From Opitutales bacterium (GTDB lineage Bacteria > Verrucomicrobiota > Verrucomicrobiia > Opitutales > Coraliomargaritaceae), in NCBI GenBank assembly GCA_018607135.1, contig JABBCA010000102.1, positions 6,742 to 70,741 on the forward strand: DNA of 64,000 nucleotides. The letters run 5' to 3'. Position numbers and translations under genes: made by a program. Shown here piece after piece: positions 26,478 through 38,349 of this stretch. Under the pieces are notes generated by a model, which was not told the DNA's origin, ran no database searches, and saw only the letters and a program-made list of their open reading frames with translations. Within the stretch, counting starts at the first letter, position 1; each line of letters opens with the position of its first letter.

Positions 26478-29400
26478 TCACCCTGTCGCGAAATCATCCG
26501 CTAACAGCTCAGCCTGTTTGAGGATATTTTCCGTCGCGATCTTCTCTAGGTCGGGTGGATAACCGAACCGCTTCAGCGTGGTTTTCACCAAGGCTCGCAT
26601 TTTGATTCGGACTTTCTCCCGCTTCGTCCAATCGATAGTCGCATTCTTCCGAATGAGATTAACTAGCACGATAGCCAAGTCCTTCAGAGTGTCATTGTCC
26701 ATGACCTCCATCGCGGAATCATTATCCGCCAGAGCCATGTAGAAGGCATATTCATAATCGGAGAGGCCGACTTCTTTCGCTTCGAGATCGGAGGCTTTGA
26801 TCTCCTTGCCCATCTCGATGAGTTCTTGAATCACCTCAGCGGCTGTCAGCACATTATTCTGATATTTCCTAATCGCGTTTTCGAGCATCTCAGAAAGCTT
26901 TTTGCTCTGCATCGCGTTGCGCTTGGTGCGGCTCTTGATCTCGTCGTTTAGGAGCTTCCTGAGAAGTTCAACGGCGAGGTTCTTCTGTTCCATGCCTCGA
27001 ACTTCTTCCATGAACTCATCCGAGAGAATGGAAACATCCGGTTTCTGTATTCCGGCGGCATCGAACACATCCACCACCCCCTCGGAAACCACCGCCTTGT
27101 CGATCAGTTGGCGCACGGCGGATTCGACCTCAGTCGAGCTTCGACCGCCGTTGCCTCCTCCGCCACCATCGAATTTCACGAGCCGGGCTTTCACCGCTTG
27201 GAAGAAGGCCACTTCGTCCTTCGCCTCCATTGCCTCATCACTAGGCACAGCCAGGGCAAAAGCTTTCGAGAGGGTGTTCACCTCTTTACAGAAACGCTCT
27301 TTGCCGTCTTCGATCCCAAGGATAAAATCCTGGGCTTCGACAAGCAGCATCATTTTGCGGCGTGTATCCGCCTCAAAATACTCGTCGTAGGAAAATCCAT
27401 GAAGGATTTGCGCCACGACTTCCAGTTTCTCTCTCATCAAGGCGATAGCCTCTGATTGATCGAACGTCGGCTTTCCTTTTCCTCCGCTCTCCGTGTAGGT
27501 CGCGAGTGCTTCCTTCAATGACGTAGCAATACCGAGGTAATCAACAATCAAGCCACCTTCTTTGTCTTTGTAGACGCGGTTCACTCGGGCAATGGCCTGC
27601 ATCAGATTGTGCCCCTGCATCGGCTTATCCACATAAAGTGTGTGTAGGCTCGGAGCATCAAACCCAGTGAGCCACATATCCCGCACGATCACGATTTCCA
27701 GCCCGTCGGAAGGGTCTTTCAATCGCTCAGCCAGATTCTGGCGATCATGCTTATTGGTCGAGTGCCTTGCCCACTCTACGGGGTCGGAACTGGTGCTGGT
27801 CATCACCACCTTGATTTTCCCTTTTCTGAGGTCGTCGTCGTGCCAGTCAGGACGAAGTTTCACAATCGCCTCATAAACCTCGACCGCAATACGGCGGCTC
27901 ATCGCGACGAACATGACTTTCCCCTCGAATGCTTCCTGACGGGTCTCGAAGTGCTCAATAAAATCTTCTGCAATCGCTTCTACGCGCCTTGGATGACCGA
28001 CGATTGCTTCGAGCTGTGTCCACTTCGCCTTGGCTCTCTGGCTGGCCGCATCTTCCTGTCCCTCGGTTAGCTGATCGAATTCCTCATCGAGATCGGCAAT
28101 TTTCTCCTCGTCGAGGTTCAGCTTGGCGAGGCGTGATTCGTAGTAAATGCGCACCGTCGCACCGTCCAGAACTGCCTGTTCGATATCGTAGACGTCGATG
28201 TAATTGCCAAAAACAGCAGGAGTCGAAGCATCATCGCGCTCAATCGGTGTTCCGGTAAAGCCAATGAAACTGGCTTCAGGCAAGCCGTCTCGCAAATACT
28301 TGGCAAAGCCGTATTTGATAACGGCCTGATCGCCTTTCTCCACAGTCTTTGCGGCAAAACCATACTGCGAACGATGGGCTTCGTCGGCCATCACGACGAT
28401 ATTCCTGCGCTCCGAAAGCGTTTCATAAACGGAGGAGCCTTCCTCGGGAGCGAACTTCTGAATCGTGGTGAAAATGATTCCGCCTCCTTCAGTCTTGAGA
28501 AGTTCCTTGAGGTGGTCTCGATCTTCCGCTTGCACGGGTGTCTGCCGGAGGAGCTGCTTGCAGCCCGCGAAGGTATCGAAGAGCTGCTGATCGAGATCGT
28601 TGCGATCCGTCAACACGACGACAGTCGGATTGTTCAGCGCGAGCACGATCTTTCCGGTGTAAAAAACCATCGAGAGGGATTTCCCGGACCCCTGCGTGTG
28701 CCAGACCACACCTGCCTTCTGGTCTCCGGCTGGCTGATCTTTGACCGTGGGCAGATTGCCATAGGCTACGGGATCTTCCATCACCCGATCCGAAACCGCA
28801 GTCGCCCGTTTGGTGGATTCCACGGCGCGATTGACGGCGTGGTATTGGTGATAGGCTGCGATTTTTTTGACGGTCTGGATCTGCTTCAGCCCGTTCTCAT
28901 CTTCGCTTTCTGACTTCTCGAAAACGGTGAACTGTTTGATGAGGTCAAGCAACACATCGGGACGGAGCAGTCCTTTGCAGAGCGTTTCGATCTGTGGAAT
29001 CACCTTGTCGTCTTCCTTGATCCCATCGACGGTTTTCCAACGCATGAAGCGTGAAAAGCCAGCCGTCAGTGACCCCGCTCGGGCTTCGATCCCATCGGAG
29101 GCGATAAGCACGGTATTGTAGTCGAAAAGCCGGGGAATCTCCTGCTTGTAGGTCTGGAGCTGGTCGTAGGCCTTACGAACCGTTGCGTTCTCATCCGAAG
29201 GATTCTTTAGCTCGATCACGACGAGCGGCATTCCATTGACCAAAACAAGAACGTCCGGTCGCTTCGTCACAATCGTTCCGCGCTGCGATGCCTGCACCGT
29301 AAACTGATTCGTGATCTCCAAGCGATTATTGGAAGGACACTCAAAGTCCACCAAATTCACAATCTCGCCCCGCGCTTCACCGTCCTTCTGGATTTCGACT

Positions 29401-29675
29401 TTGATCCCTTCAGTTAGGTAGCGATGAAACTCCTCGTTGTTCTCCAAGAGATTCTGGCTGGAAAGTGAAAGCACCATCCGCAAAGCCGTATCGCGTGCTT
29501 GTTCCGGAACCTTCGGATTCAGCGCGGCCACCATCTCCCGCAAAGTCTCTTCGACGACGACCTTCTGAGGGTCAAGTCGGTTGAGTTGCTCGGGGGAAAC
29601 AAAGCGATAGCCTTGGTTCTCCAAGACTTCGAGGCAGAATTCCTCCACCGCTGATTCTGTAATGCGTTGCGACAT
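26478..29675 (-). CDS. hsdR: Type I restriction enzyme subunit R
   Basis: The start at 29675 (MSQRITESAVEEFCLE) gives 1065 residues, normal for HsdR; the longer frame overlaps the upstream gene. The N-terminal nuclease has PD at about 140-141 and ELK at 155-157 (PD-(D/E)XK). The SF2 motor shows Walker A HTQGSGKS (about 326-333) and DEAH at 431-434. The VVLTDRNDLDQQL and GFTGTP motifs follow, and motif VI is in ARVNRVY. A helical C-terminus docks to the methylase. HsdR translocates and cuts unmethylated DNA when bound to HsdM2S. It is the last gene of a long minus-strand operon, separated from hsdM and hsdS by accessory genes. Confidence 0.95.
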   Translation of the reverse strand: MSQRITESAVEEFCLEVLENQGYRFVSPEQLNRLDPQKVVVEETLREMVAALNPKVPEQARDTALRMVLSLSSQNLLENNEEFHRYLTEGIKVEIQKDGEARGEIVNLVDFECPSNNRLEITNQFTVQASQRGTIVTKRPDVLVLVNGMPLVVIELKNPSDENATVRKAYDQLQTYKQEIPRLFDYNTVLIASDGIEARAGSLTAGFSRFMRWKTVDGIKEDDKVIPQIETLCKGLLRPDVLLDLIKQFTVFEKSESEDENGLKQIQTVKKIAAYHQYHAVNRAVESTKRATAVSDRVMEDPVAYGNLPTVKDQPAGDQKAGVVWHTQGSGKSLSMVFYTGKIVLALNNPTVVVLTDRNDLDQQLFDTFAGCKQLLRQTPVQAEDRDHLKELLKTEGGGIIFTTIQKFAPEEGSSVYETLSERRNIVVMADEAHRSQYGFAAKTVEKGDQAVIKYGFAKYLRDGLPEASFIGFTGTPIERDDASTPAVFGNYIDVYDIEQAVLDGATVRIYYESRLAKLNLDEEKIADLDEEFDQLTEGQEDAASQRAKAKWTQLEAIVGHPRRVEAIAEDFIEHFETRQEAFEGKVMFVAMSRRIAVEVYEAIVKLRPDWHDDDLRKGKIKVVMTSTSSDPVEWARHSTNKHDRQNLAERLKDPSDGLEIVIVRDMWLTGFDAPSLHTLYVDKPMQGHNLMQAIARVNRVYKDKEGGLIVDYLGIATSLKEALATYTESGGKGKPTFDQSEAIALMREKLEVVAQILHGFSYDEYFEADTRRKMMLLVEAQDFILGIEDGKERFCKEVNTLSKAFALAVPSDEAMEAKDEVAFFQAVKARLVKFDGGGGGNGGRSSTEVESAVRQLIDKAVVSEGVVDVFDAAGIQKPDVSILSDEFMEEVRGMEQKNLAVELLRKLLNDEIKSRTKRNAMQSKKLSEMLENAIRKYQNNVLTAAEVIQELIEMGKEIKASDLEAKEVGLSDYEYAFYMALADNDSAMEVMDNDTLKDLAIVLVNLIRKNATIDWTKREKVRIKMRALVKTTLKRFGYPPDLEKIATENILKQAELLADDFATG

Positions 29676-29677
29676 GT

Positions 29678-30370
29678 TTAGGTGGCCAGATAGGCTTGCT
29701 TGGGATCGGTGGGAGTTCTGGGAAACGCCAGCTGTAGCTTCCTTTCGGCTTTCAGCGGAGCCAAATACTGGCCTCTTAAGGTGGTAATCTCCCGGTTGAG
29801 GAGAACGGACAGGGCGCCCGAGGTCACATATTGCCCACGGCAAAGTTCCAGGATCACTTGTATCATCTCCTCGCGGCTCAACTTCTTTTTTGTTCTGGGC
29901 GATTGGGCAATCGTTTCGAGTTCTTGCCTGAATGCGGGTGTCAAAGTCGCAATATCATCCACAAACGGGTAACTAAACTGGACGTGCACGATTCTTCCCT
30001 TTTCGTCCAAATTCGTAGTGCTCGGCTCCAAATTCGTAGTGTTCGACTCCAAATTCGTAGTGCTCGGCTCCAAATTCGTAGTGCTTTCAAACACATCTTC
30101 CGCAGTCGGCAGCATATGTCCGGGAATGTGATAGGTCTTGGCGCGATACTGACCAGTGGTCTCAAGGATACCCGACTTCTCAAGCCCATTCAGCGTCGCA
30201 CCGAGGTCTCGGGGGTGTTCCATACAGAATTGTGAGAGCCTCGTATGGGTGACTACCGCCATTTTCGCGGCCCATTCCTGCCAACGTCCGCGTTTCGTGT
30301 AGCTAAGGGCAGAAACACGCGTCGGCACAAGCTGAACCATTTCGTTGGAGGTAGCGTTGATTTGGAACAT
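29678..30370 (-). CDS. Chimeric DNA-binding protein (nuclease-type N-terminus joined to winged-helix C-terminus)
   Basis: In this 230-residue protein residues 1-37 (MFQINATSNEMVQLVPTRVS, ending WQEWAAKM) resemble the start of the ORF at 32198-32476. The rest looks like the C-terminal part of AlbA_2-type ATP-binding regulators: a winged helix (LSQFCMEHPRDLGATLNGLE), four TTNLE repeats (30009-30083 in DNA), then a second winged helix ending LAFPRTPTDPKQAYL. The ATPase/AlbA part is absent. The stop codon is 2 nt before hsdR, so it is translationally coupled to it. Either a real fused regulator or a recombination remnant kept for coupling. Confidence 0.6.
   Translation of the reverse strand: MFQINATSNEMVQLVPTRVSALSYTKRGRWQEWAAKMAVVTHTRLSQFCMEHPRDLGATLNGLEKSGILETTGQYRAKTYHIPGHMLPTAEDVFESTTNLEPSTTNLESNTTNLEPSTTNLDEKGRIVHVQFSYPFVDDIATLTPAFRQELETIAQSPRTKKKLSREEMIQVILELCRGQYVTSGALSVLLNREITTLRGQYLAPLKAERKLQLAFPRTPTDPKQAYLAT
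30009..30083. repeat. 21-bp tandem repeat encoding TTNLEPS units
   Basis: Three full units (30009-30029, 30030-30050, 30051-30071) start AAATTCGTAGTG, followed by a 12-nt partial unit. On the coding (minus) strand they encode repeated TTNLE-type heptapeptides, forming a linker. Copy number could vary between strains. Confidence 0.8.
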
Positions 30371-30408: not shown

Positions 30409-31773
30409 CTAATACAGGTCACCTAAAATAACACGAGTAGCCGAATCTTTGCCCAATTTTTTAACGTCTCCCTCCGATATACTTGGGTAGAGCTTATTCT
30501 TTCGAAGAAGCGAATATTGAATCACCTCCCGTTGTGCGCGCTTGTTGAAAATTTCGGCGACAATAGCAGGGTGCGTTTTTATTGATCGGGCAAAATTTTG
30601 AACCTCCCAACAGTGCGGTTTCTGGTGCCTTACATAAAAACGAGTCAATTCGTCGCTCGCGACCAACTTGCCATCGGCCCATTGATCCGCTTCCTGCTCA
30701 CGCTGGTCATCTTTCTGATTTTCGTAATCAGTAATCGACTCTCCTGCTTTATTCAAATGCAGCATTAGATGGCCGATTTCATGAAAGAGAACTCTCCAGA
30801 ACTGGGCATGATTTCGATATTTTAGACCATGGACGATCACCGCTTTTGCTGGCGTCATCAGTTTAGTGCACCCCCTCAAGGCGGATTGCTTCATAATTGG
30901 AACAAAAACTAGAGCGACACCAGCCTTTCGCAGCTCTTCTTTTACCTCCGGTATAATTTTCAAAACGTCGTCGTGTTGAGTGTATTCTCTTAGCCTTTTG
31001 ACGGCACTATCGAGCTTATCCCGGTCAAAGGGTTCGACAGTAATGCTCGCCGCGGCCTGCTCACCGATCCAGCACCACATGCCCGCGCTAATCGGATTAG
31101 TCTGCTGGCTTGTATCCTGATAAGCCGCCATCTTTTCCCATGCGCCTTGAGCAGCTTTTTCAACTCCTTGAAGGTTGGGCGCTTTAAACAGCTGACACAG
31201 CTCTGACCTTTTTTCCTTCGGGCTTTGGCTCTTTTTGACCAAGCCCATTTCAACCATTACCCGATAATCAACAAAGGAGAGGATTTTTTTCTCTTCTTCA
31301 TCCGGCTGTCGATCCTCGATATGCAACTTGGGAGATTCCTCACGATTCCAATTCCTTTTCCGGAGGATTTCGAAGGCCTCCCGGCTCGCAAGGAGAGTGC
31401 GCAGATTATTACTCACCGACTTGGAGGGGCGCATATGTCCGCGTAGCCACCGCGAAATGTTCTTTTCTCCGTAACCCGTGATCTCTGCTGCTTCTTTTTG
31501 GGTGATGCCGTATTTGTCTAGAAAGGCCTGTATTTCCTTCGGCGTGATCGCCTCAGAGATTTTGTCTAAATAGGCATCAATTGCTTCGCCACCTTCGTCA
31601 CCGACAACAACGCAATCGCACTGATTGCAGCGATGCAGCGGGACATGCGGGACACTTACAGAACCCAGATCAGGTGCTTCTGTTTCGAAGTCTTCATAAA
31701 CGAGCTGCATGGTGCCTTTCTCACATTGAAAGCAAGGGAAGTCGTTCGCTTCGTCTTTTTGTTTGTTTTTCAT
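30409..31773 (-). CDS. MqsA-like zinc/HTH antitoxin fused to an ImmA/IrrE metallopeptidase
   Basis: The 454-residue protein has an N-terminal zinc site (CxxC at 14/17 and 49/52) and an XRE-type helix-turn-helix (about 78-130; ITQKEAAEITGYGEKNISRWL), the layout of MqsA antitoxins. The C-terminal domain has the HEIGH zinc-peptidase motif (331-335) preceded by FWRVLF, as in ImmA/IrrE peptidases. ImmA/IrrE proteins cleave repressors in response to DNA damage or single-stranded DNA. The small gene 4 bp upstream is its probable toxin partner. Two palindromes ahead of that gene are candidate operators for the HTH domain. Function as antitoxin is inference from architecture and gene order. Confidence 0.8.
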   Translation of the reverse strand: MKNKQKDEANDFPCFQCEKGTMQLVYEDFETEAPDLGSVSVPHVPLHRCNQCDCVVVGDEGGEAIDAYLDKISEAITPKEIQAFLDKYGITQKEAAEITGYGEKNISRWLRGHMRPSKSVSNNLRTLLASREAFEILRKRNWNREESPKLHIEDRQPDEEEKKILSFVDYRVMVEMGLVKKSQSPKEKRSELCQLFKAPNLQGVEKAAQGAWEKMAAYQDTSQQTNPISAGMWCWIGEQAAASITVEPFDRDKLDSAVKRLREYTQHDDVLKIIPEVKEELRKAGVALVFVPIMKQSALRGCTKLMTPAKAVIVHGLKYRNHAQFWRVLFHEIGHLMLHLNKAGESITDYENQKDDQREQEADQWADGKLVASDELTRFYVRHQKPHCWEVQNFARSIKTHPAIVAEIFNKRAQREVIQYSLLRKNKLYPSISEGDVKKLGKDSATRVILGDLY

Positions 31774-31777
31774 CGGA

Positions 31778-32158
31778 CTACTTTTTCTTTCTAATTCTTT
31801 TTAACGGGAGCGGTGGCCCGCCCGCATCATGGGGGTGGATCGCGAGCATAACCTTCGGCGGCTTACCTTTAGGCGACATTGTAATGTGGATTAGGATTTC
31901 ACCGGCATCATCCCAGCGCATGACGAATTGATGGCGTTGCAGGTCAGCATGACTATTCTTGGGCTTTAAGAAGATTTCGTATGTTTCAAGATCCTTGATG
32001 AGTTCCTCGTAAAATGCGGATTGGCGAATTCCCCATTGATTCAGCCACCTTATGGATGGGCTGTTTCCATCAAAGAAGCGTCTCTTTTTGTCGCGGAGGC
32101 ACTCCAGGATAAGAAGTCTGACTTTTTCGCTACTGGTTGGTCTGTCGGGCTTCTTCAT
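31778..32158 (-). CDS. Putative toxin partner of the MqsA/ImmA protein
   Basis: A 126-residue basic protein, with helical N-terminal half (SEKVRLLILECLRDKKRRFF; FYEELIKDLETYEIFLKP) and a beta-rich end (HQFVMRWDDAGEILIHITMS). I do not recognise the family. The size, charge, position just after two palindromes, and 4-bp spacing from an antitoxin-like gene suggest a type II toxin. No catalytic residue can be named. It may instead be a structural partner. Confidence 0.55.
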   Translation of the reverse strand: MKKPDRPTSSEKVRLLILECLRDKKRRFFDGNSPSIRWLNQWGIRQSAFYEELIKDLETYEIFLKPKNSHADLQRHQFVMRWDDAGEILIHITMSPKGKPPKVMLAIHPHDAGGPPLPLKRIRKKK

Positions 32159-32166
32159 TAATAAGG

Positions 32167-32226
32167 GGTGCTTTTTATCACTTTTGTCGAATAAATTCTA
32201 CAAAAAAGTGCTTTTTAACACTTTTT
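32167..32226 (-). promoter_or_regulatory. Paired operator-like palindromes ahead of the toxin-antitoxin-like pair
   Basis: Site 1 is GGTGCTTTTTATCACTT at 32167-32183. Site 2 is AAAAAGTG-CTTTTTAA-CACTTTTT at 32203-32226, with perfect 8-bp arms. They share the pattern AAGTG-N8-CACTT and their centres are 40 bp apart, about four helical turns. This fits cooperative binding by the HTH antitoxin encoded downstream (autoregulation). No footprint or promoter motif is certain. Confidence 0.5.
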
Positions 32227-32476
32227 GCAATTTCTCGCGAATTACTCTAGTGGCTTCAACAGTGTCATCCATGTTCGCCTCTAATAGGTGAGGAAGCAGC
32301 TGGGTTTCATCAAACCCGTCGAACTCTTTTTGAATAATCAGTAACTCCTCACCAAGCGATTCCGGCATCTTCGCCATCCACTCCTGAAGGTGCCCTCGCT
32401 CGGTAAAGCCGAGATCCGAGAACCGCTTGGGCACAAGCTGGACAATTTCGTTGGAAGTGGAGTTGATTTGGAACAT
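32198..32476 (-). pseudogene. Truncated nuclease-like gene (N-terminal part only)
   Basis: A 92-residue frame. Residues 1-59 match the start of a DUF4268/NucS-like endonuclease family (FSDLGFTERGHLQEWMAKMP, then GEELLIIQKEFDGF). In that family the next block carries the nuclease core (ENKLDD-type). Here it is replaced by an unrelated tail (LLPHLLEANMDD to the end). The frame ends inside the operator region of the next gene pair. It starts 3 bp after the reverse transcriptase C-terminal frame, so it is still in the operon. Its first 36 residues are paralogous to the start of the ORF at 29678-30370. Confidence 0.6.
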
Positions 32477-32479
32477 GGC

Positions 32480-32947
32480 TTAACTTTGCTTTTTCTTGTT
32501 AAAACGGGCTAAGAGTGACTCTACGAATTGCGTGCTATCCTCATAATCGAATACATCGACCTCTGAGCTCGGTATGATCGGAGTCATCTCGGAAATCGCC
32601 TTCTTGTTGATGATTTTGGATGTTCTGAGAGCTGTCTTTAGTTTATCTGACTTGATCCACTCACTGTTCCAGAGATTCAGGCCATAGTTACCGCCATCCT
32701 CACCACCTACTAAATCACACAAGGCTTCCGAGTAAGAGATCTCGATCATTGCGGGGCATGAAATACGTTGAAGCCAGATTTGCAGATGTCCGTTATTCGG
32801 AAGTATATCCAGACGTTTTTTGATTTTGGTAAAGACCTCGGTCACATCGTCTACATGGCTCAAGAGAACACTCAAAATACCAGCAATTAGTGGGTGGGTG
32901 CGCGGGTGAAGAATCGCAATGTCAACCGATATGCCAATCATTGGCAT
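32480..32947 (-). CDS. C-terminal part of the reverse transcriptase (out of frame with the N-terminal part)
   Basis: A 155-residue frame that overlaps the end of the RT frame by 26 nt in another phase. It begins inside the palindrome at 32924-32954. The stretch DIAILHPRTHPLIAGILSVLL onward looks like the helical thumb/C-terminal part of a reverse transcriptase, not an independent protein. Deleting 16 nt at the palindrome joins the two frames into one of 534 residues. It could be made separately from the internal ATG, but no clear ribosome-binding site supports this. Confidence 0.55.
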   Translation of the reverse strand: MPMIGISVDIAILHPRTHPLIAGILSVLLSHVDDVTEVFTKIKKRLDILPNNGHLQIWLQRISCPAMIEISYSEALCDLVGGEDGGNYGLNLWNSEWIKSDKLKTALRTSKIINKKAISEMTPIIPSSEVDVFDYEDSTQFVESLLARFNKKKQS

Positions 32948-34100
32948 ATCGGTTATGTAGAGGCTTTCCCTCCTTATGATAGCGCTTGTGCGCCTTCTCC
33001 AGACGATTTAGGAAATCTTTCAAAAGGGTGAGGCTGTAGCCTGATCCAGAATGTTTGGAAATAAACCCGTGAATCAGTAACAACTGTTTTTGCAGATTCT
33101 TATCGAACTGTCTGGTTTCTAACCAATCCAGCTTATCCGGTTTAACGGACTCTCTGATCACGGCTCCAGTCAGCGTAGTTTTACTCGGGTGGAGCTTGAA
33201 CCCGAGAGACTGTAGTAGCTCAGATAAAATCTTAAGTATGCGCTCTCCTTCAGTCGGATGGTTCGTGAAGATTCGATAGTCATCTCGATAGCGAAGGATA
33301 TGATACTCATGGAGACCCGCCTTCTTTAAAGCCAAACAAAGAATCAAATCGGCGTAACCCAGAACGATCTCTGCTACAAAGTCCATCAGCACCGAACCTT
33401 GAGGTATGCCGTTGGTTTGTCCGTAGCTCATATCGCGCAGCAATACATCGACTTTATCTCCCATCAAGTTGGCTTTGCCCTTACTTGCTTTTGCGATCTT
33501 CTTTCCGTTGATAGCCCACGCTAAGGAGTGCGTGTAAACAGAGCCATAGCAGTCAGTGATGTCTGTCTTGGCCATATAGGCATAGTCCAATGATAGCTCA
33601 ATCGACCTCTGCTCGATCTCATGCCACCACGTCAATATTTGTGCTGCCTTATCTGACTTTTTGCCAAGCGAGATAACTGGTAAACTAAGACATTGAATGC
33701 GTGGGTTGCTTTGAAAACGACGAAAGCGTCTTCTCAGAGCATTCCAATTTTCCTCTGAAGTCAGAAGGTTAACCAATGCATAATACAAGGCGGGATGGAT
33801 CAGAGTGAATGGTCGCCATGCATATTTTCCGTCCTTATTGGCTAGCAAGGTATGGTTTACGTCATCGTAATTACTGGCGGAATCTTTACTGACACAGTAA
33901 CTCTTGAGTTGTTTGCCATTTAGAACCTTAGAGACCTTTGCGAGAACCTCCTCAAAACAGAAGTATGGTGGCAGCTCAAAGTTGCAGTAACTCTCGCGCT
34001 TGATGAAGAACTGCTCGGCCTGAGCATAATCCAAATCAAGAAGGCCAAGGGTGTCTCCCTTAGCAACTCCAGCTTCTTGTTTGGATTTTTTCTCGGCCAT
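32922..34100 (-). CDS. Reverse transcriptase of the defence-associated (UG/Abi-like) type, frameshifted
   Basis: The 392-residue frame has RT motif A as KTDITDCYGS (Asp180, Asp183), motif B as GIPQGSVLMD (233-236 PQGS), motif C as RYRDDYR (271-274, the active-site DD) and motif D as LGFKLHPSKT. The unusual YRDD core, lack of a retron or group II intron context, and the restriction-modification setting suggest one of the unknown-group (UG/DRT) antiviral RTs; the exact group is not readable by eye. The frame ends at a palindrome that looks like a templated 16-nt insertion. Its start lies 11 nt after the hsdS stop, so it is part of the hsd operon. Confidence 0.85.
   Translation of the reverse strand: MAEKKSKQEAGVAKGDTLGLLDLDYAQAEQFFIKRESYCNFELPPYFCFEEVLAKVSKVLNGKQLKSYCVSKDSASNYDDVNHTLLANKDGKYAWRPFTLIHPALYYALVNLLTSEENWNALRRRFRRFQSNPRIQCLSLPVISLGKKSDKAAQILTWWHEIEQRSIELSLDYAYMAKTDITDCYGSVYTHSLAWAINGKKIAKASKGKANLMGDKVDVLLRDMSYGQTNGIPQGSVLMDFVAEIVLGYADLILCLALKKAGLHEYHILRYRDDYRIFTNHPTEGERILKILSELLQSLGFKLHPSKTTLTGAVIRESVKPDKLDWLETRQFDKNLQKQLLLIHGFISKHSGSGYSLTLLKDFLNRLEKAHKRYHKEGKPLHNRYANDWHIG
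32924..32954. repeat. Perfect palindrome at the RT frame break
   Basis: Arms AACCGATATGCCAA (32924-32937) and TTGGCATATCGGTT (32941-32954) with a 3-nt TCA loop. On the coding strand the second half looks copied from the first by a snap-back event. It contains 16 nt whose removal restores the frame (34100 to 32480 is 1621 nt; minus 16 is 1605, divisible by 3). Confidence 0.9.
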
Positions 34101-34111
34101 TAGGGTAGGGT

Positions 34112-35461
34112 CTAAGCGGTAACGCGAATTTCGCCTTTCATCAGCTTTGGAAGAAGCGTGTCGCGGAGGTCGGTTAGGGTTTGGATTTGTTTAGCGTTAG
34201 ATTCGACCTTACTGAATAAAGGCGATGCTAATTGATGGAAATCAATCAATCGTTGATCGTCGGGACGTATGAGTTCTACTTCAGAGAAGGATGTTGTATT
34301 TATGTTTAAGGTTGCAGAACCTCCGGCTCCTAAATTTTGCAGAAACCCGTTGAGCGTCTTCAGTCTTAAAAAGAGGTATTCCGTTTCATTTTTCTGATTC
34401 GGAACAATAGAGTTTATCTGCTGATTGGTTTGTGCCGCAGAACTCGTCAGGGCTACTAATCCAACTGTCGCGATACAGCTTACCATTATTGATCCTTTTG
34501 GAATTGTTTTGTTACTCTGTGATTCTGCCCCTTCAGAGCTTAGGTATTCACCGCTTCTCAGAATAAACACATTGCCGTGCATATCAGGTATTTTGATGAA
34601 AAGCACTTCATCCCCATAGTTACTTTTAATCGCCTTGCTCGGAGTTTTTCCGCAGACGATCTTTCCGAAATCCTTCAATTTGCCAATCTGCCACCCCTCT
34701 GGAATCTCGCCAAGCTCTGACGGTATCATCTTCCCGCCGCTGTCCTTGTAGGGGTTGCCGTTTTCGTCGGGGAAGTTGAAGTCGATGAACCACCGTTTGA
34801 AGAGGGTTTGGGCAAGGGCTTCCAAGGTCTCGTTCTGCTCCCGCAACAACTCGATTTTGTCGTCCAAGCTACCGAGAACAGCAGCGATGGCTTTTTGCTC
34901 GGGGAGAGGTGGAAATGTCCGCGTAAACCCCTCTAGCATTCCTTTGGTCAAGGCATTCCGTGTAGCTCCTGCACTGGCTAGTCCCAAAAGATCTCCCTTA
35001 TTGGCCCGTGTAACCAGCATGTATTCAAGGAATCTCGGACTGGCTTCATATTGGTCTGCTCGAACAATAGCAACGTGCTGATTAACTCTGGCTGGAAGAA
35101 AACTTGAAGGGACACGACACACTCTTGCCACAGAGTCTCCGGTAATATTTATTAGGACATCCTCTGCCTCAATCTCGACATTAGCGAGTTGCCCCGCTTG
35201 CTCATCGTCTATGAAAGCCAATCCACTTGGCTCAAACTTGAGATCGAGAATATTTTGACTACGAATGAGCGAAATGCCTTGTTCTTTGTATGCATCTTTT
35301 CCCCCTCTTGGCGTTGCTCCGCTTCCGATTTTAGTTGTCAGTTCCGATAGAGGTCTTGGTGTCCACCCCTCAGGCACCCGCTCACCATCTTCGCCGAGGT
35401 AAAACCCCTTTTTGAAGTCGGAAGTTTGAGGAGTGAAGTTTGAATTATTTTCCGTGTCCAT
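34112..35461 (-). CDS. hsdS: Type I restriction-modification specificity subunit S
   Basis: The start at 35461 (MDTENNSNF), 4 nt after the Abi_2 stop, gives 449 residues, typical of HsdS. There are two target-recognition domains. TRD1 opens VPEGWTPRPLSELTTKIGSG and TRD2 opens IPEGWQIGKLKDFGKIVCGK. Each is followed by a conserved helical spacer (LPEQKAIAAVLGSLDDKIEL; later TLTDLRDTLLPKLMKGEI). The subunit selects the bipartite DNA target for both methylation and cleavage. Target sequence cannot be predicted from this. Confidence 0.95.
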   Translation of the reverse strand: MDTENNSNFTPQTSDFKKGFYLGEDGERVPEGWTPRPLSELTTKIGSGATPRGGKDAYKEQGISLIRSQNILDLKFEPSGLAFIDDEQAGQLANVEIEAEDVLINITGDSVARVCRVPSSFLPARVNQHVAIVRADQYEASPRFLEYMLVTRANKGDLLGLASAGATRNALTKGMLEGFTRTFPPLPEQKAIAAVLGSLDDKIELLREQNETLEALAQTLFKRWFIDFNFPDENGNPYKDSGGKMIPSELGEIPEGWQIGKLKDFGKIVCGKTPSKAIKSNYGDEVLFIKIPDMHGNVFILRSGEYLSSEGAESQSNKTIPKGSIMVSCIATVGLVALTSSAAQTNQQINSIVPNQKNETEYLFLRLKTLNGFLQNLGAGGSATLNINTTSFSEVELIRPDDQRLIDFHQLASPLFSKVESNAKQIQTLTDLRDTLLPKLMKGEIRVTA

Positions 35462-35465
35462 GATG

Positions 35466-36416
35466 TTACTTCGCCTCGGTAGTCCAAACGGGGTGGGCTT
35501 TCCAATTTTCGGTGAGTCCCATTTTTTTGAGTGCATTTGGGCACTTGGGGGCGTCGTCTGTAATGAGGGTTTCGATACGCTGGCACCAGTTGTTCGTAAA
35601 ATTGGACTCCGCGGCGCAATACGTGAGTAGTTTGCGTTGCAGGAGTAGACTGGCGAAAAGGTGACCATTGCTGAGAAGCTGCGGGGCTTGCCATAGTTTA
35701 CCTTGAGGCAGCTCCGGTTTGATCGACCATTCGCGATCCCAGAGGCGGGCATGATGCGCGCAAAGATTACGCACATAGACGAGATGGTGGAGGGCGGAGA
35801 TAAAGTCGAGCGGCTGCAGCTTGTAGCGTGATGCTATCCGTTTCACGTCGGCTTTTTGCATGCCTTCGATCATGCGAGAGAGTGTGCCAAAGGACATGAT
35901 CTCGGTCGCCACCCAAATCGGGAGGTCAGGAAACTCTGAGTAGGTTTTTTCAAAATGCTCAATAAATCGCTCGCTGGAGCGTTTGCTTTCTCCGCGAAGG
36001 CTACCCAGCCACTGTTTGTGGTTGAAGGCGGCTTCCTCGTTTTTTTTGCCAGTGTGCTTGACTGCTGTATAGAAATTTTCCGTGTCAGTATGCCCAAAGG
36101 CCTGATACTTTTCGCCAAAGGTGTAGGCGGCGCTGGTGCGGATATCCAACTCGATCACCTCCATTGATTCGTAAATCAGGTCGCGCAGGTTGCGGTCGAA
36201 CTCGTAGGCATGGCGAATCTGCTCAAAGCTCGTGCCCTTTATAAATTGATGACGTGAGGCTTCAAAAGCCAAGCCGTAACCGCTAAAGCGGTAGTAGTTC
36301 AAATGGCGAAGAAACGCTTCGGCATCGGTCGTGCATTCGATTTCAAGTCCGGCATCTTTAAGCTTTTGGAGCTGGCCGGTGACAGATAACCAAGTTTTAG
36401 CGTAAGGAGCTTTCAA
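35466..36416 (-). CDS. Abi_2 family (AbiD/AbiF-like) abortive infection protein
   Basis: The 316-residue cytoplasmic protein has the Abi_2 hallmark opening YAKTWLSVTGQLQKLKDAGL, then LRHLNYYRFSGYGLAF, then FDRNLRDLIYESMEVIELDI. Its late RNLCAHHARLWDR segment supplies the HEPN-type RxxxxH (R-N-L-C-A-H) catalytic site of RNases. Family members trigger abortive infection or act as TA toxins. The gene is inserted between hsdM and hsdS, 4 nt before hsdS, so expression is tied to the restriction system. Confidence 0.85.
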   Translation of the reverse strand: MKAPYAKTWLSVTGQLQKLKDAGLEIECTTDAEAFLRHLNYYRFSGYGLAFEASRHQFIKGTSFEQIRHAYEFDRNLRDLIYESMEVIELDIRTSAAYTFGEKYQAFGHTDTENFYTAVKHTGKKNEEAAFNHKQWLGSLRGESKRSSERFIEHFEKTYSEFPDLPIWVATEIMSFGTLSRMIEGMQKADVKRIASRYKLQPLDFISALHHLVYVRNLCAHHARLWDREWSIKPELPQGKLWQAPQLLSNGHLFASLLLQRKLLTYCAAESNFTNNWCQRIETLITDDAPKCPNALKKMGLTENWKAHPVWTTEAK

Positions 36417-36617: not shown

Positions 36618-38165
36618 TTAAAACTCTAGCTCAATACCCACCTTGGCGAGCTGGGTTTGGATTTCCTGATTCAGCTCGGCTTCTTTTTGAATTTGAGCGG
36701 TGAGCTTGCCGGTGAGGTCGGCGATTTTTTCCTCGTAGGGTATGCCGTCGTCTTCCTCATCAGGAATGCCGACGTAGCGACCTGGAGTGAGAATGAAGCT
36801 GTGCTTCTCGATGTCAGTGAGGCTGGCGGCTTTGCTGAATCCTTTCTCGTCTTCGTAGTCGCCTGTCTGCTTTCGCCAGTTCAGATAGGCATCGCGAATC
36901 TTCACCATGTCCTCCTCCGCAAAGGCGCGGTGGGTGCGGTCTTCCATGTAGCCCATGCTGGAGGCATCGATGAAGAGCGTTTCTTCCTGAGTGCGGCCAC
37001 GGCGCAAAAACCAGAGGCAGGCGGGAATGCCAGTGTTGTAGAAAAGCTGCTTCGGTAAAGCGACGATGCAATCGACCAGATTGGCTTTGACGAGAGCCTG
37101 CCGAATTTCGCCTTCGCCAGACTGATTCGAGGAGAGCGAGCCATTGGCCAAAACGAGTGAGCAAATCCCCGTCGGCGCAGTGTGGTAGAGCATGTGCTGA
37201 ATCCAACCATAGTTGGCGTTGCCCTTCGGTGGGGTTCCATACTGCCAGCGAGCGTCTCCTTGGAGCAGCTCAACGCCCCATTCGTCCTGATTGAAGGGTG
37301 GATTGGCGATGATGAAGTCGGCCTTCAGGTCGCGGTGCTCATCCTTGAGGAAAGAGCCCTCGGCGTTCCATTGGATTCCGCTGCCGTCAATGCCGCGAAT
37401 GGCTAGGTTCATGCGGGACAGCTTCCAAGTGGTCTGGTTGCTCTCCTGACCGTAGAGCGAAAGGTCATCCAATCCGCCGCCGTGCTCTTCCACGAACTTC
37501 TCGGACATGACAAACATACCACCCGAACCACAGGCAGGGTCATAGACCCGCCCCTTGTAAGGCTCGATCATTTCCACCATCAGGCGGACAATCGACTTCG
37601 GCGTATAGAACTGTCCGCCCTTCTTGCCCTCGGCATTGGCGAACTCGCCAAGGAAGTATTCATACACCCGGCCAAGCAAATCCTTACTCTGAGCAGCGGC
37701 ATCGCCAATCGCAGTATCTGCAATCAGATCGATCAGACCGCCGAGCGTGGCTTGATCGAGGTTTTCCTTGGCGTAGATCTTCGGCAGCACGCCTTTGAGC
37801 GAAGCGTTCTCCCGCTCGATGGCATCCATCGCAGTATCCAGTGCCTTGCCAACGGTGGGCAGTTTGGAAGAGGCGTGAATCGTTTCCCATCGAGCTTCAC
37901 TGGGCACCCAGAAGACACCCGCTCCCGCATAGAAGTCGCGGTCTTCGAGGTCGATAAACTCACCCTCACCAAAGTCCGTTTCGCCTGCCTTCAGCTTCTC
38001 ACGGTATTCCTCAAAAGCATCCGAAATGTATTTCAGGAAGATCAGTCCTAACACGACGTGCTTATATTCAGCGGCGTCGATGTTCTTGCGCAGCTTGTCG
38101 GCAGCTTTGAAAAGCTGTTTTTCAAACGGCTCGGAGGCTTTGGCGGTTTTCTTTTTCGCAGGCAT
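36618..38165 (-). CDS. hsdM: Type I restriction-modification DNA methyltransferase subunit M
   Basis: The start at 38165 (MPAKKKTAKASEPFEKQLF) gives 515 residues. The HsdM N-terminal helical domain (LRKNIDAAEYKHVVLGLIFLK) is followed by GGQFYTPKSIV. The SAM-binding motif is DPACGSGG (209-216) and the catalytic motif is NPPF (288-291), typical of N6-adenine methylases. A C-terminal coiled coil (ADLTGKLTAQIQKEAELNQE) contacts HsdS. Start codon is 4 nt after the ParD-like stop. Confidence 0.95.
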   Translation of the reverse strand: MPAKKKTAKASEPFEKQLFKAADKLRKNIDAAEYKHVVLGLIFLKYISDAFEEYREKLKAGETDFGEGEFIDLEDRDFYAGAGVFWVPSEARWETIHASSKLPTVGKALDTAMDAIERENASLKGVLPKIYAKENLDQATLGGLIDLIADTAIGDAAAQSKDLLGRVYEYFLGEFANAEGKKGGQFYTPKSIVRLMVEMIEPYKGRVYDPACGSGGMFVMSEKFVEEHGGGLDDLSLYGQESNQTTWKLSRMNLAIRGIDGSGIQWNAEGSFLKDEHRDLKADFIIANPPFNQDEWGVELLQGDARWQYGTPPKGNANYGWIQHMLYHTAPTGICSLVLANGSLSSNQSGEGEIRQALVKANLVDCIVALPKQLFYNTGIPACLWFLRRGRTQEETLFIDASSMGYMEDRTHRAFAEEDMVKIRDAYLNWRKQTGDYEDEKGFSKAASLTDIEKHSFILTPGRYVGIPDEEDDGIPYEEKIADLTGKLTAQIQKEAELNQEIQTQLAKVGIELEF

Positions 38166-38169
38166 AAAA

Positions 38170-38349
38170 TTATTGATTCTTAGGTGACTTCTTTTTCGCG
38201 CTCTTTTTGGGAGCCGAATGAAGTTGGGATTCACGGATCTCCAGAAGGCGAAGTCCCTCGCGCACCACCTCACTGGCGGAGCGATAGCGTCCTTGCTCAA
38301 CCAATTGGTTGACGAATTCTTCGAGCTTATCGGTCAGTGAGACATTCAT
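38170..38349 (-). CDS. ParD/CopG-type ribbon-helix-helix antitoxin-like protein, first gene of the hsd operon
   Basis: From ATG 38349 (MNVSLTDKLEEFVNQLV) this gives 59 residues. The ribbon-helix-helix core NVSLTDKLEEFV and RYRSASEVVREGLRLLE matches ParD antitoxins. A Lys/Ser-rich tail (APKKSAKKKSPKNQ) replaces the usual toxin-binding end. No ParE toxin gene is adjacent; the next gene is hsdM, 4 nt later. It may act as a repressor of the operon. An orphan antitoxin is the alternative. Confidence 0.8.
   Translation of the reverse strand: MNVSLTDKLEEFVNQLVEQGRYRSASEVVREGLRLLEIRESQLHSAPKKSAKKKSPKNQ

What the first reader, a model, noticed from the sequence alone, without database searches (positions are those of the whole stretch)
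32480..34100. Reverse transcriptase interrupted by a 16-nt snap-back palindrome
Seen: the RT frame (34100 to 32922, motifs DITD, PQGS, YRDD) ends at a perfect 14-bp-arm palindrome (32924-32954). A second frame (32947 to 32480) continues with RT-like C-terminal sequence. The coding strand reads ...TATGCCAATGA, then TTGGCATATCGGTTGA (16 nt), then CATTGCG. Deleting those 16 nt gives YAND-IAILHP and one frame of 534 residues. The inserted half mirrors the adjacent half, as expected from templated fold-back synthesis. Inference: a recent, possibly reversible inactivation (phase variation) of a costly antiviral RT, or a natural two-part protein.
Basis: partly seen in the sequence, partly recalled or inferred. 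Interest (0 to 1): 0.85.

Follow-up and report, generated by a model that had tools for sequence, protein, structure and literature searches.

The report
Frameshifted Abi-P2 reverse transcriptase gene
A bacterial anti-phage reverse transcriptase gene (Abi-P2 family), sitting inside a type I restriction-modification locus, has been knocked out of frame by a small mirror-image duplication of its own sequence; this looks like an ordinary recent loss-of-function mutation, or possibly an assembly error, and there is no evidence that it is a genetic switch.

Summary
Window 32924-32954 is a perfect palindrome (15-bp arms, 1-nt spacer), with about 1e-4 expected by chance in 64 kb. It separates two frames that match one PADLOC profile, AbiP2, end to end (positions 7-351 and 356/357-487 of 489). 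The gene is an Abi-P2 polymerase with intact YRDD motif and priming tyrosine, lying between hsdS and hsdR of a type I RM locus.

The interpretation needs correcting. All 72 full-length homologues compared are one frame across this site. The downstream arm reads IGISV in the C-terminal frame, which fits conserved columns (+8.8 bits).

The palindrome occurs once in the genome, and a 437-kb sample shows no convincing further case in a gene. It is most likely a single template-switch insertion that inactivated a costly defence gene. Sequencing or assembly error is the main rival and cannot be tested here. Nothing supports phase variation or a natural two-part protein. The neighbouring PDC-S11 gene is also truncated, so the island is partly decayed. 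Interest is low.

The parts
32922..34100 (-). N-terminal frame of the Abi-P2-type reverse transcriptase (392 aa; about 375 native residues and then a frame-shifted tail of about 17). It carries the priming Tyr46 equivalent, DITD (180), PQGS (233) and YRDD (271).
   Evidence: AbiP2 profile 7-351/489, E 4e-152; match ends at residue 375; 7r08
32480..32947 (-). C-terminal frame of the same gene (155 aa from the first ATG; homology begins at MPMIGISVDIA). Part of the C-terminal helical domain.
   Evidence: AbiP2 profile 357-487/489, E 4e-33; 7r08 393-540
32940..32954 (-). Upstream arm (coding strand), the inferred inserted inverted copy. It lies outside the homologous part of the N frame.
32939..32939 (-). 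1-nt spacer of the palindrome
32924..32938 (-). Downstream arm, original coding sequence. In the C frame it encodes IGISV, matching conserved homologue columns.
32922..32924 (-). Premature stop codon (TGA) of the N-terminal frame
34112..35776 (-). HsdS, type I restriction specificity subunit (frame as listed; homology begins near residue 132)
36618..38300 (-). HsdM-like type I methyltransferase frame (identified from reading the sequence and from similarity to frames beside homologous RTs; not profile-searched)
26478..29843 (-). HsdR-like type I restriction subunit frame (same basis as HsdM)
35466..36416 (-). AbiD / Abi_2 family protein between hsdM and hsdS
32198..32476 (-). Truncated PDC-S11 defence-candidate gene (60 of 375 profile positions), a second decayed gene in the island

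Best explanation
[quoted passage not shown] It was inactivated by one short templated mutation. During replication the growing strand switched template, copied about 12-15 nt of adjacent coding sequence in inverted orientation, and returned. This added about 19-22 nt (a +1 frame change) immediately upstream of the copied sequence and created a perfect palindrome. Translation now ends at a TGA at the end of the palindrome, early in the C-terminal helical domain, so the protein lacks most of the domain that borders the DNA channel and forms trimer contacts. Loss of function is therefore expected. Shown: one family across both frames, which arm is original, uniqueness in the genome. Inferred: the template-switch mechanism, recency, loss of function.
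For: Both frames hit consecutive parts of one AbiP2 profile with nothing missing. The 72 full-length homologues aligned are continuous ORFs across the site. The downstream arm region in the C frame scores +8.8 bits against homologue columns, versus -11.7 for the alternative reading. The spacing from N-frame residue 364 to the conserved Asp of VDIA is 22 codons in 39 of 72 homologues (21-23 in 61 of 72) but 29.33 codons here, a gain of about 19-22 nt and a frame change. The palindrome has no other near-match copy in the genome, so it is not a dispersed repeat. The priming-tyrosine column (72/72 Y) and the R, D and D of YRDD are invariant and present here. The helical domain takes part in trimer formation, oligomers are needed for polymerisation, and deletion of the last 46 residues abolished antiphage activity of the related AbiK (PMC9508834). 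Template-switch mutations at quasipalindromes are documented in E. coli (PMC7202029).
Against: No reads or close relatives were available. The nearest homologues are about 50-52% identical, so the exact insertion borders and the date cannot be fixed, and an assembly error is not excluded. The inverted copy explains about 12-15 nt of the 19-22 nt gained. The remaining 7-mer TCTACAT has an inverted match about 105 nt away, but about 0.07 such matches are expected by chance within 300 nt on either side.
Confidence: 0.75

Rival explanations
1. Sequencing or assembly artefact: the genome is a 106-contig draft and the inverted copy does not exist in the cell.
For: Draft assembly. Both frames are otherwise clean, as they would be if the gene were really intact.
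Against: A simple fold-back chimaera would not return to the original strand as this does. The event is isolated: in 437 kb of the same genome the only other palindromes with arms >=13 and spacer <=1 are an operator-like site before a TetR-type gene and one inside a membrane-protein gene that shows no frame break.
Confidence: 0.17
2. Two-part protein: the halves are made separately (stop and re-start at ATG 32947) and assemble into a working polymerase.
For: The ATG of the second frame lies inside the first frame, about 20 nt before its stop, so reinitiation is conceivable. The break falls near a loop of variable length in homologues.
Against: No split homologue at this point among 72 full-length ones. 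The nearest Shine-Dalgarno-like AAGGAGG ends 21 nt before the ATG. The ATG is buried in a very stable RNA hairpin.
Confidence: 0.04
3. Reversible phase variation: gain and loss of the inverted copy switches a costly defence gene off and on.
For: Palindromes are prone to deletion; three other Abi-P2 homologues also carry single in-frame stops, so broken copies are not rare.
Against: No second state was seen and no repeat array or site-specific recombinase was identified at the site. Only about 3-nt repeats border the insert. The three other broken homologues have plain stops at other places, with no palindrome noted at them.
Confidence: 0.03
4. Programmed +1 frameshift at GGT-TGA-C (the stop context resembles that of prfB) gives a full-length protein.
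For: A +1 shift at the stop would enter the C frame directly.
Against: The glycine tRNA would pair poorly after slipping (general knowledge). The product would replace the conserved IGISV stretch. No homologue uses this.
Confidence: 0.01

Closest known systems
Abi-P2 (AbiP2) polymerase, PDB 7r08; PADLOC PDLC03744
   Same: Same regions in order, YRDD active site, priming Tyr61 equivalent (Tyr46 here), C-terminal helical domain sequence
   Different: Open reading frame interrupted inside the helical domain
Quasipalindrome-associated template-switch mutation (E. coli, yeast)
   Same: Short inverted copy of adjacent DNA, producing or extending a perfect palindrome
   Different: Here the state before the mutation is inferred from distant homologues, not from a parent strain; a few inserted nt are not explained by the adjacent template
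Type I RM loci with an embedded Abi-P2-like reverse transcriptase
   Same: hsdM, hsdS, RT and hsdR neighbours as in a subset of homologue loci
   Different: Additional AbiD, truncated PDC-S11 and MqsA/IrrE-like genes between hsdM and hsdR

Membership tests
Abi-P2 reverse transcriptases | Best match to the AbiP2 profile over the whole length | tested here: met
   Profile 7-351 (E 4e-152; next best RT_UG14 1e-46) and 357-487 (4e-33)
Abi-P2 reverse transcriptases | RT catalytic motif YxDD | tested here: met
   YRDD at 271-274; R, D and D invariant in 72 homologues
Abi-P2 reverse transcriptases | Priming tyrosine (Tyr61 of 7r08) | tested here: met
   Aligns with Tyr46; 72/72 Y; role from PMC9508834
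Abi-P2 reverse transcriptases | Single polypeptide with C-terminal helical domain | tested here: not met
   Domain sequence present but out of frame: a member by descent, disrupted
Abi-P2 reverse transcriptases | Template-independent, protein-primed DNA synthesis and phage defence | not testable with these tools
   Needs expression and phage assays
Template-switch (quasipalindrome) insertion | Inserted sequence is the inverted copy of adjacent ancestral sequence | tested here: met
   15-nt perfect inverted copy; adjacent arm shown to be ancestral by homologues
Template-switch (quasipalindrome) insertion | Parent allele without the insertion | not testable with these tools
   No close relative carries the gene; the two same-genus genomes lack it
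Phase-variable gene | Two states in one population or strain set | not testable with these tools
   One assembly only
Dispersed palindromic repeat (REP/RPE-like) | Several similar copies in the genome | tested here: not met
   Only this copy; other hits of the 15-nt arm have 2 mismatches and do not pair into a palindrome

The most novel reading that the evidence does not exclude
Abi-P2 polymerases are switched on and off by gain and loss of self-templated palindromes inside the gene, a phase-variation mechanism without recombinase or repeat tract.
Probability: 0.03. Interest if true: 0.65.

Novelty: new member of a known kind. Interest (0 to 1): 0.2.

Why it matters
It is a clean natural example of a short template-switch mutation knocking out an abortive-infection polymerase while the surrounding restriction-modification genes remain open. 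It also shows that homologue columns, not the palindrome itself, decide which arm is new. If the state proved reversible it would be a new kind of defence switch, but nothing here indicates that.

Tried and rejected
Dispersed repeat: no further copies in the genome. Genome-wide palindrome-making process: 437 kb of the same genome has three palindromes with arms >=13 and spacer <=1, this one included; one is operator-like before a TetR-type gene and one lies in a gene that shows no frame break, and other organisms' loci show a similar excess. Transcription terminator: no T run follows the hairpin. Two-step templating of the extra TCTACAT: an inverted 7-mer lies about 105 nt away but is not significant. 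Intact second copy of the RT in the genome: none. Copies in phage, plasmid and viral collections: only distant homologues of at most about 52% identity, so no empty-site comparison at DNA level was possible. I did not build a mended gene; the two frames were searched separately.

Full report
Observation. On the minus strand the frame 34100-32922 (392 aa) ends at a TGA that overlaps the last base of a perfect palindrome, and a second frame begins inside the palindrome and runs to 32480. The inverted repeat is 32924-32938 / 32940-32954, 15 bp per arm with one base between. From base composition, 0.0066 repeats with arms of at least 15 and spacer of at most 1 are expected in 3.53 Mb, hence about 1e-4 in the window. 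The single strand folds into the expected hairpin (DNA z -6.3; RNA z -4.7). The palindrome is unique in the genome.

Identity. Both frames match the PADLOC AbiP2 profile in consecutive parts, 7-351 and 357-487 of 489, with E-values of 4e-152 and 4e-33. The same family search of the whole genome finds only these two pieces. The best solved relative is Abi-P2, 7r08: residues 37-380 match the N frame and 393-540 the C frame. The alignment places its priming Tyr61 on Tyr46 here, invariant in 72 of 72 homologues, and the R, D and D of YRDD are invariant too. The role of Tyr61 and of the helical domain is from PMC9508834.

Which half is new. 80 homologous loci from bacterial and archaeal genomes, plus relatives from the window's own order, were collected. 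72 full-length proteins were aligned and all run uninterrupted across the site. A profile from them was compared with each frame separately, without joining them: the N frame matches to residue 375 and the C frame matches from shortly before MPMIGISVDIA. The downstream arm reads IGISV in the C frame. From N-frame residue 364 to the conserved Asp, homologues have 22 codons (39 of 72; 21-23 in 61 of 72), while the window has 88 nt. The excess is thus most likely 22 or 19 nt, not 16. The borders cannot be fixed because loop length varies.

Mechanism. A short inverted copy placed next to its template, with return to the original strand, is the signature of a template switch at a quasipalindrome, documented in E. 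coli (PMC7202029). This step is inferred. A 7-mer of the insert (TCTACAT) outside the palindrome has an inverted match about 105 nt away, which is not significant. The rest of both frames is open with intact motifs, suggesting a recent event or an artefact.

Consequence. The N product ends early in the C-terminal helical domain. In Abi polymerases this domain forms oligomer contacts, oligomers are required for polymerisation, and deleting 46 C-terminal residues abolished AbiK antiphage activity (PMC9508834). Loss of function is the likely outcome, but it is inferred. Re-start at ATG 32947 is unlikely: the ATG sits in the stem of the RNA hairpin and the AAGGAGG motif ends 21 nt upstream.

Context. 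The RT lies downstream of hsdM, AbiD and hsdS and upstream of hsdR (hsdM and hsdR were named from their sequence and from similarity to frames at homologue loci, not by profile search). Matches to the window's hsdM and to its hsdS were found in 19 of 85 homologue loci each, and to hsdR in 17, so the arrangement recurs. The next gene, PDC-S11-like, is truncated to 60 of 375 positions. A further ORF at 29678-30370 begins with a 53-nt stretch 87% identical to the start of that gene. The island therefore shows other rearrangement and decay.

Broader pattern. Of the homologues, three (L038, L068, L071) have a single in-frame stop in an otherwise complete gene, so occasional inactivation of Abi-P2 genes is not special to this genome. 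These are plain stops at other places. Screening 437 kb of the same genome gave no second convincing case of a templated palindrome in a gene.

Verdict. This is a real sequence feature with the interpretation partly corrected: an ordinary inactivating template-switch insertion in a known kind of defence gene, with assembly error as the main rival and no support for a switch.

Noticed in passing
window 32198-32476 and 29678-30370: A truncated PDC-S11-like gene, and a second ORF whose first 53 nt are 87% identical to its start but which then continues with unrelated sequence; apparent recombination remnants in the RM island.
   Followed up: partly
L038:1046-1048, L068:5562-5564, L071:5292-5294: Abi-P2 homologues in three unrelated genomes (Fodinibius, Arcobacter, Blastomonas) each with a single in-frame stop in an otherwise complete gene.
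   Followed up: partly
L014:7905-7929, L023:8355-8379, L107:7693-7717: An identical 25-nt palindrome, AACTATCCGGAAATTCCGGATAGTT, downstream of Abi-P2 in three unrelated loci, inside similar coding sequence (...ATIRKFRIVR...) with divergent flanks. It also occurs exactly in 42 IMG/VR stretches, in several of which it is not in that coding context. It may be a recurrent DNA-level element; not explained.
   Followed up: partly
window 30409-31773: Fusion of an MqsA-type zinc-finger/HTH part with an IrrE-like (Peptidase_M78) part, matching PD-Lambda-2_B in part; a 51% identical relative, next to a relative of the 31778-32158 ORF, occurs beside the RT in L003.
   Followed up: no
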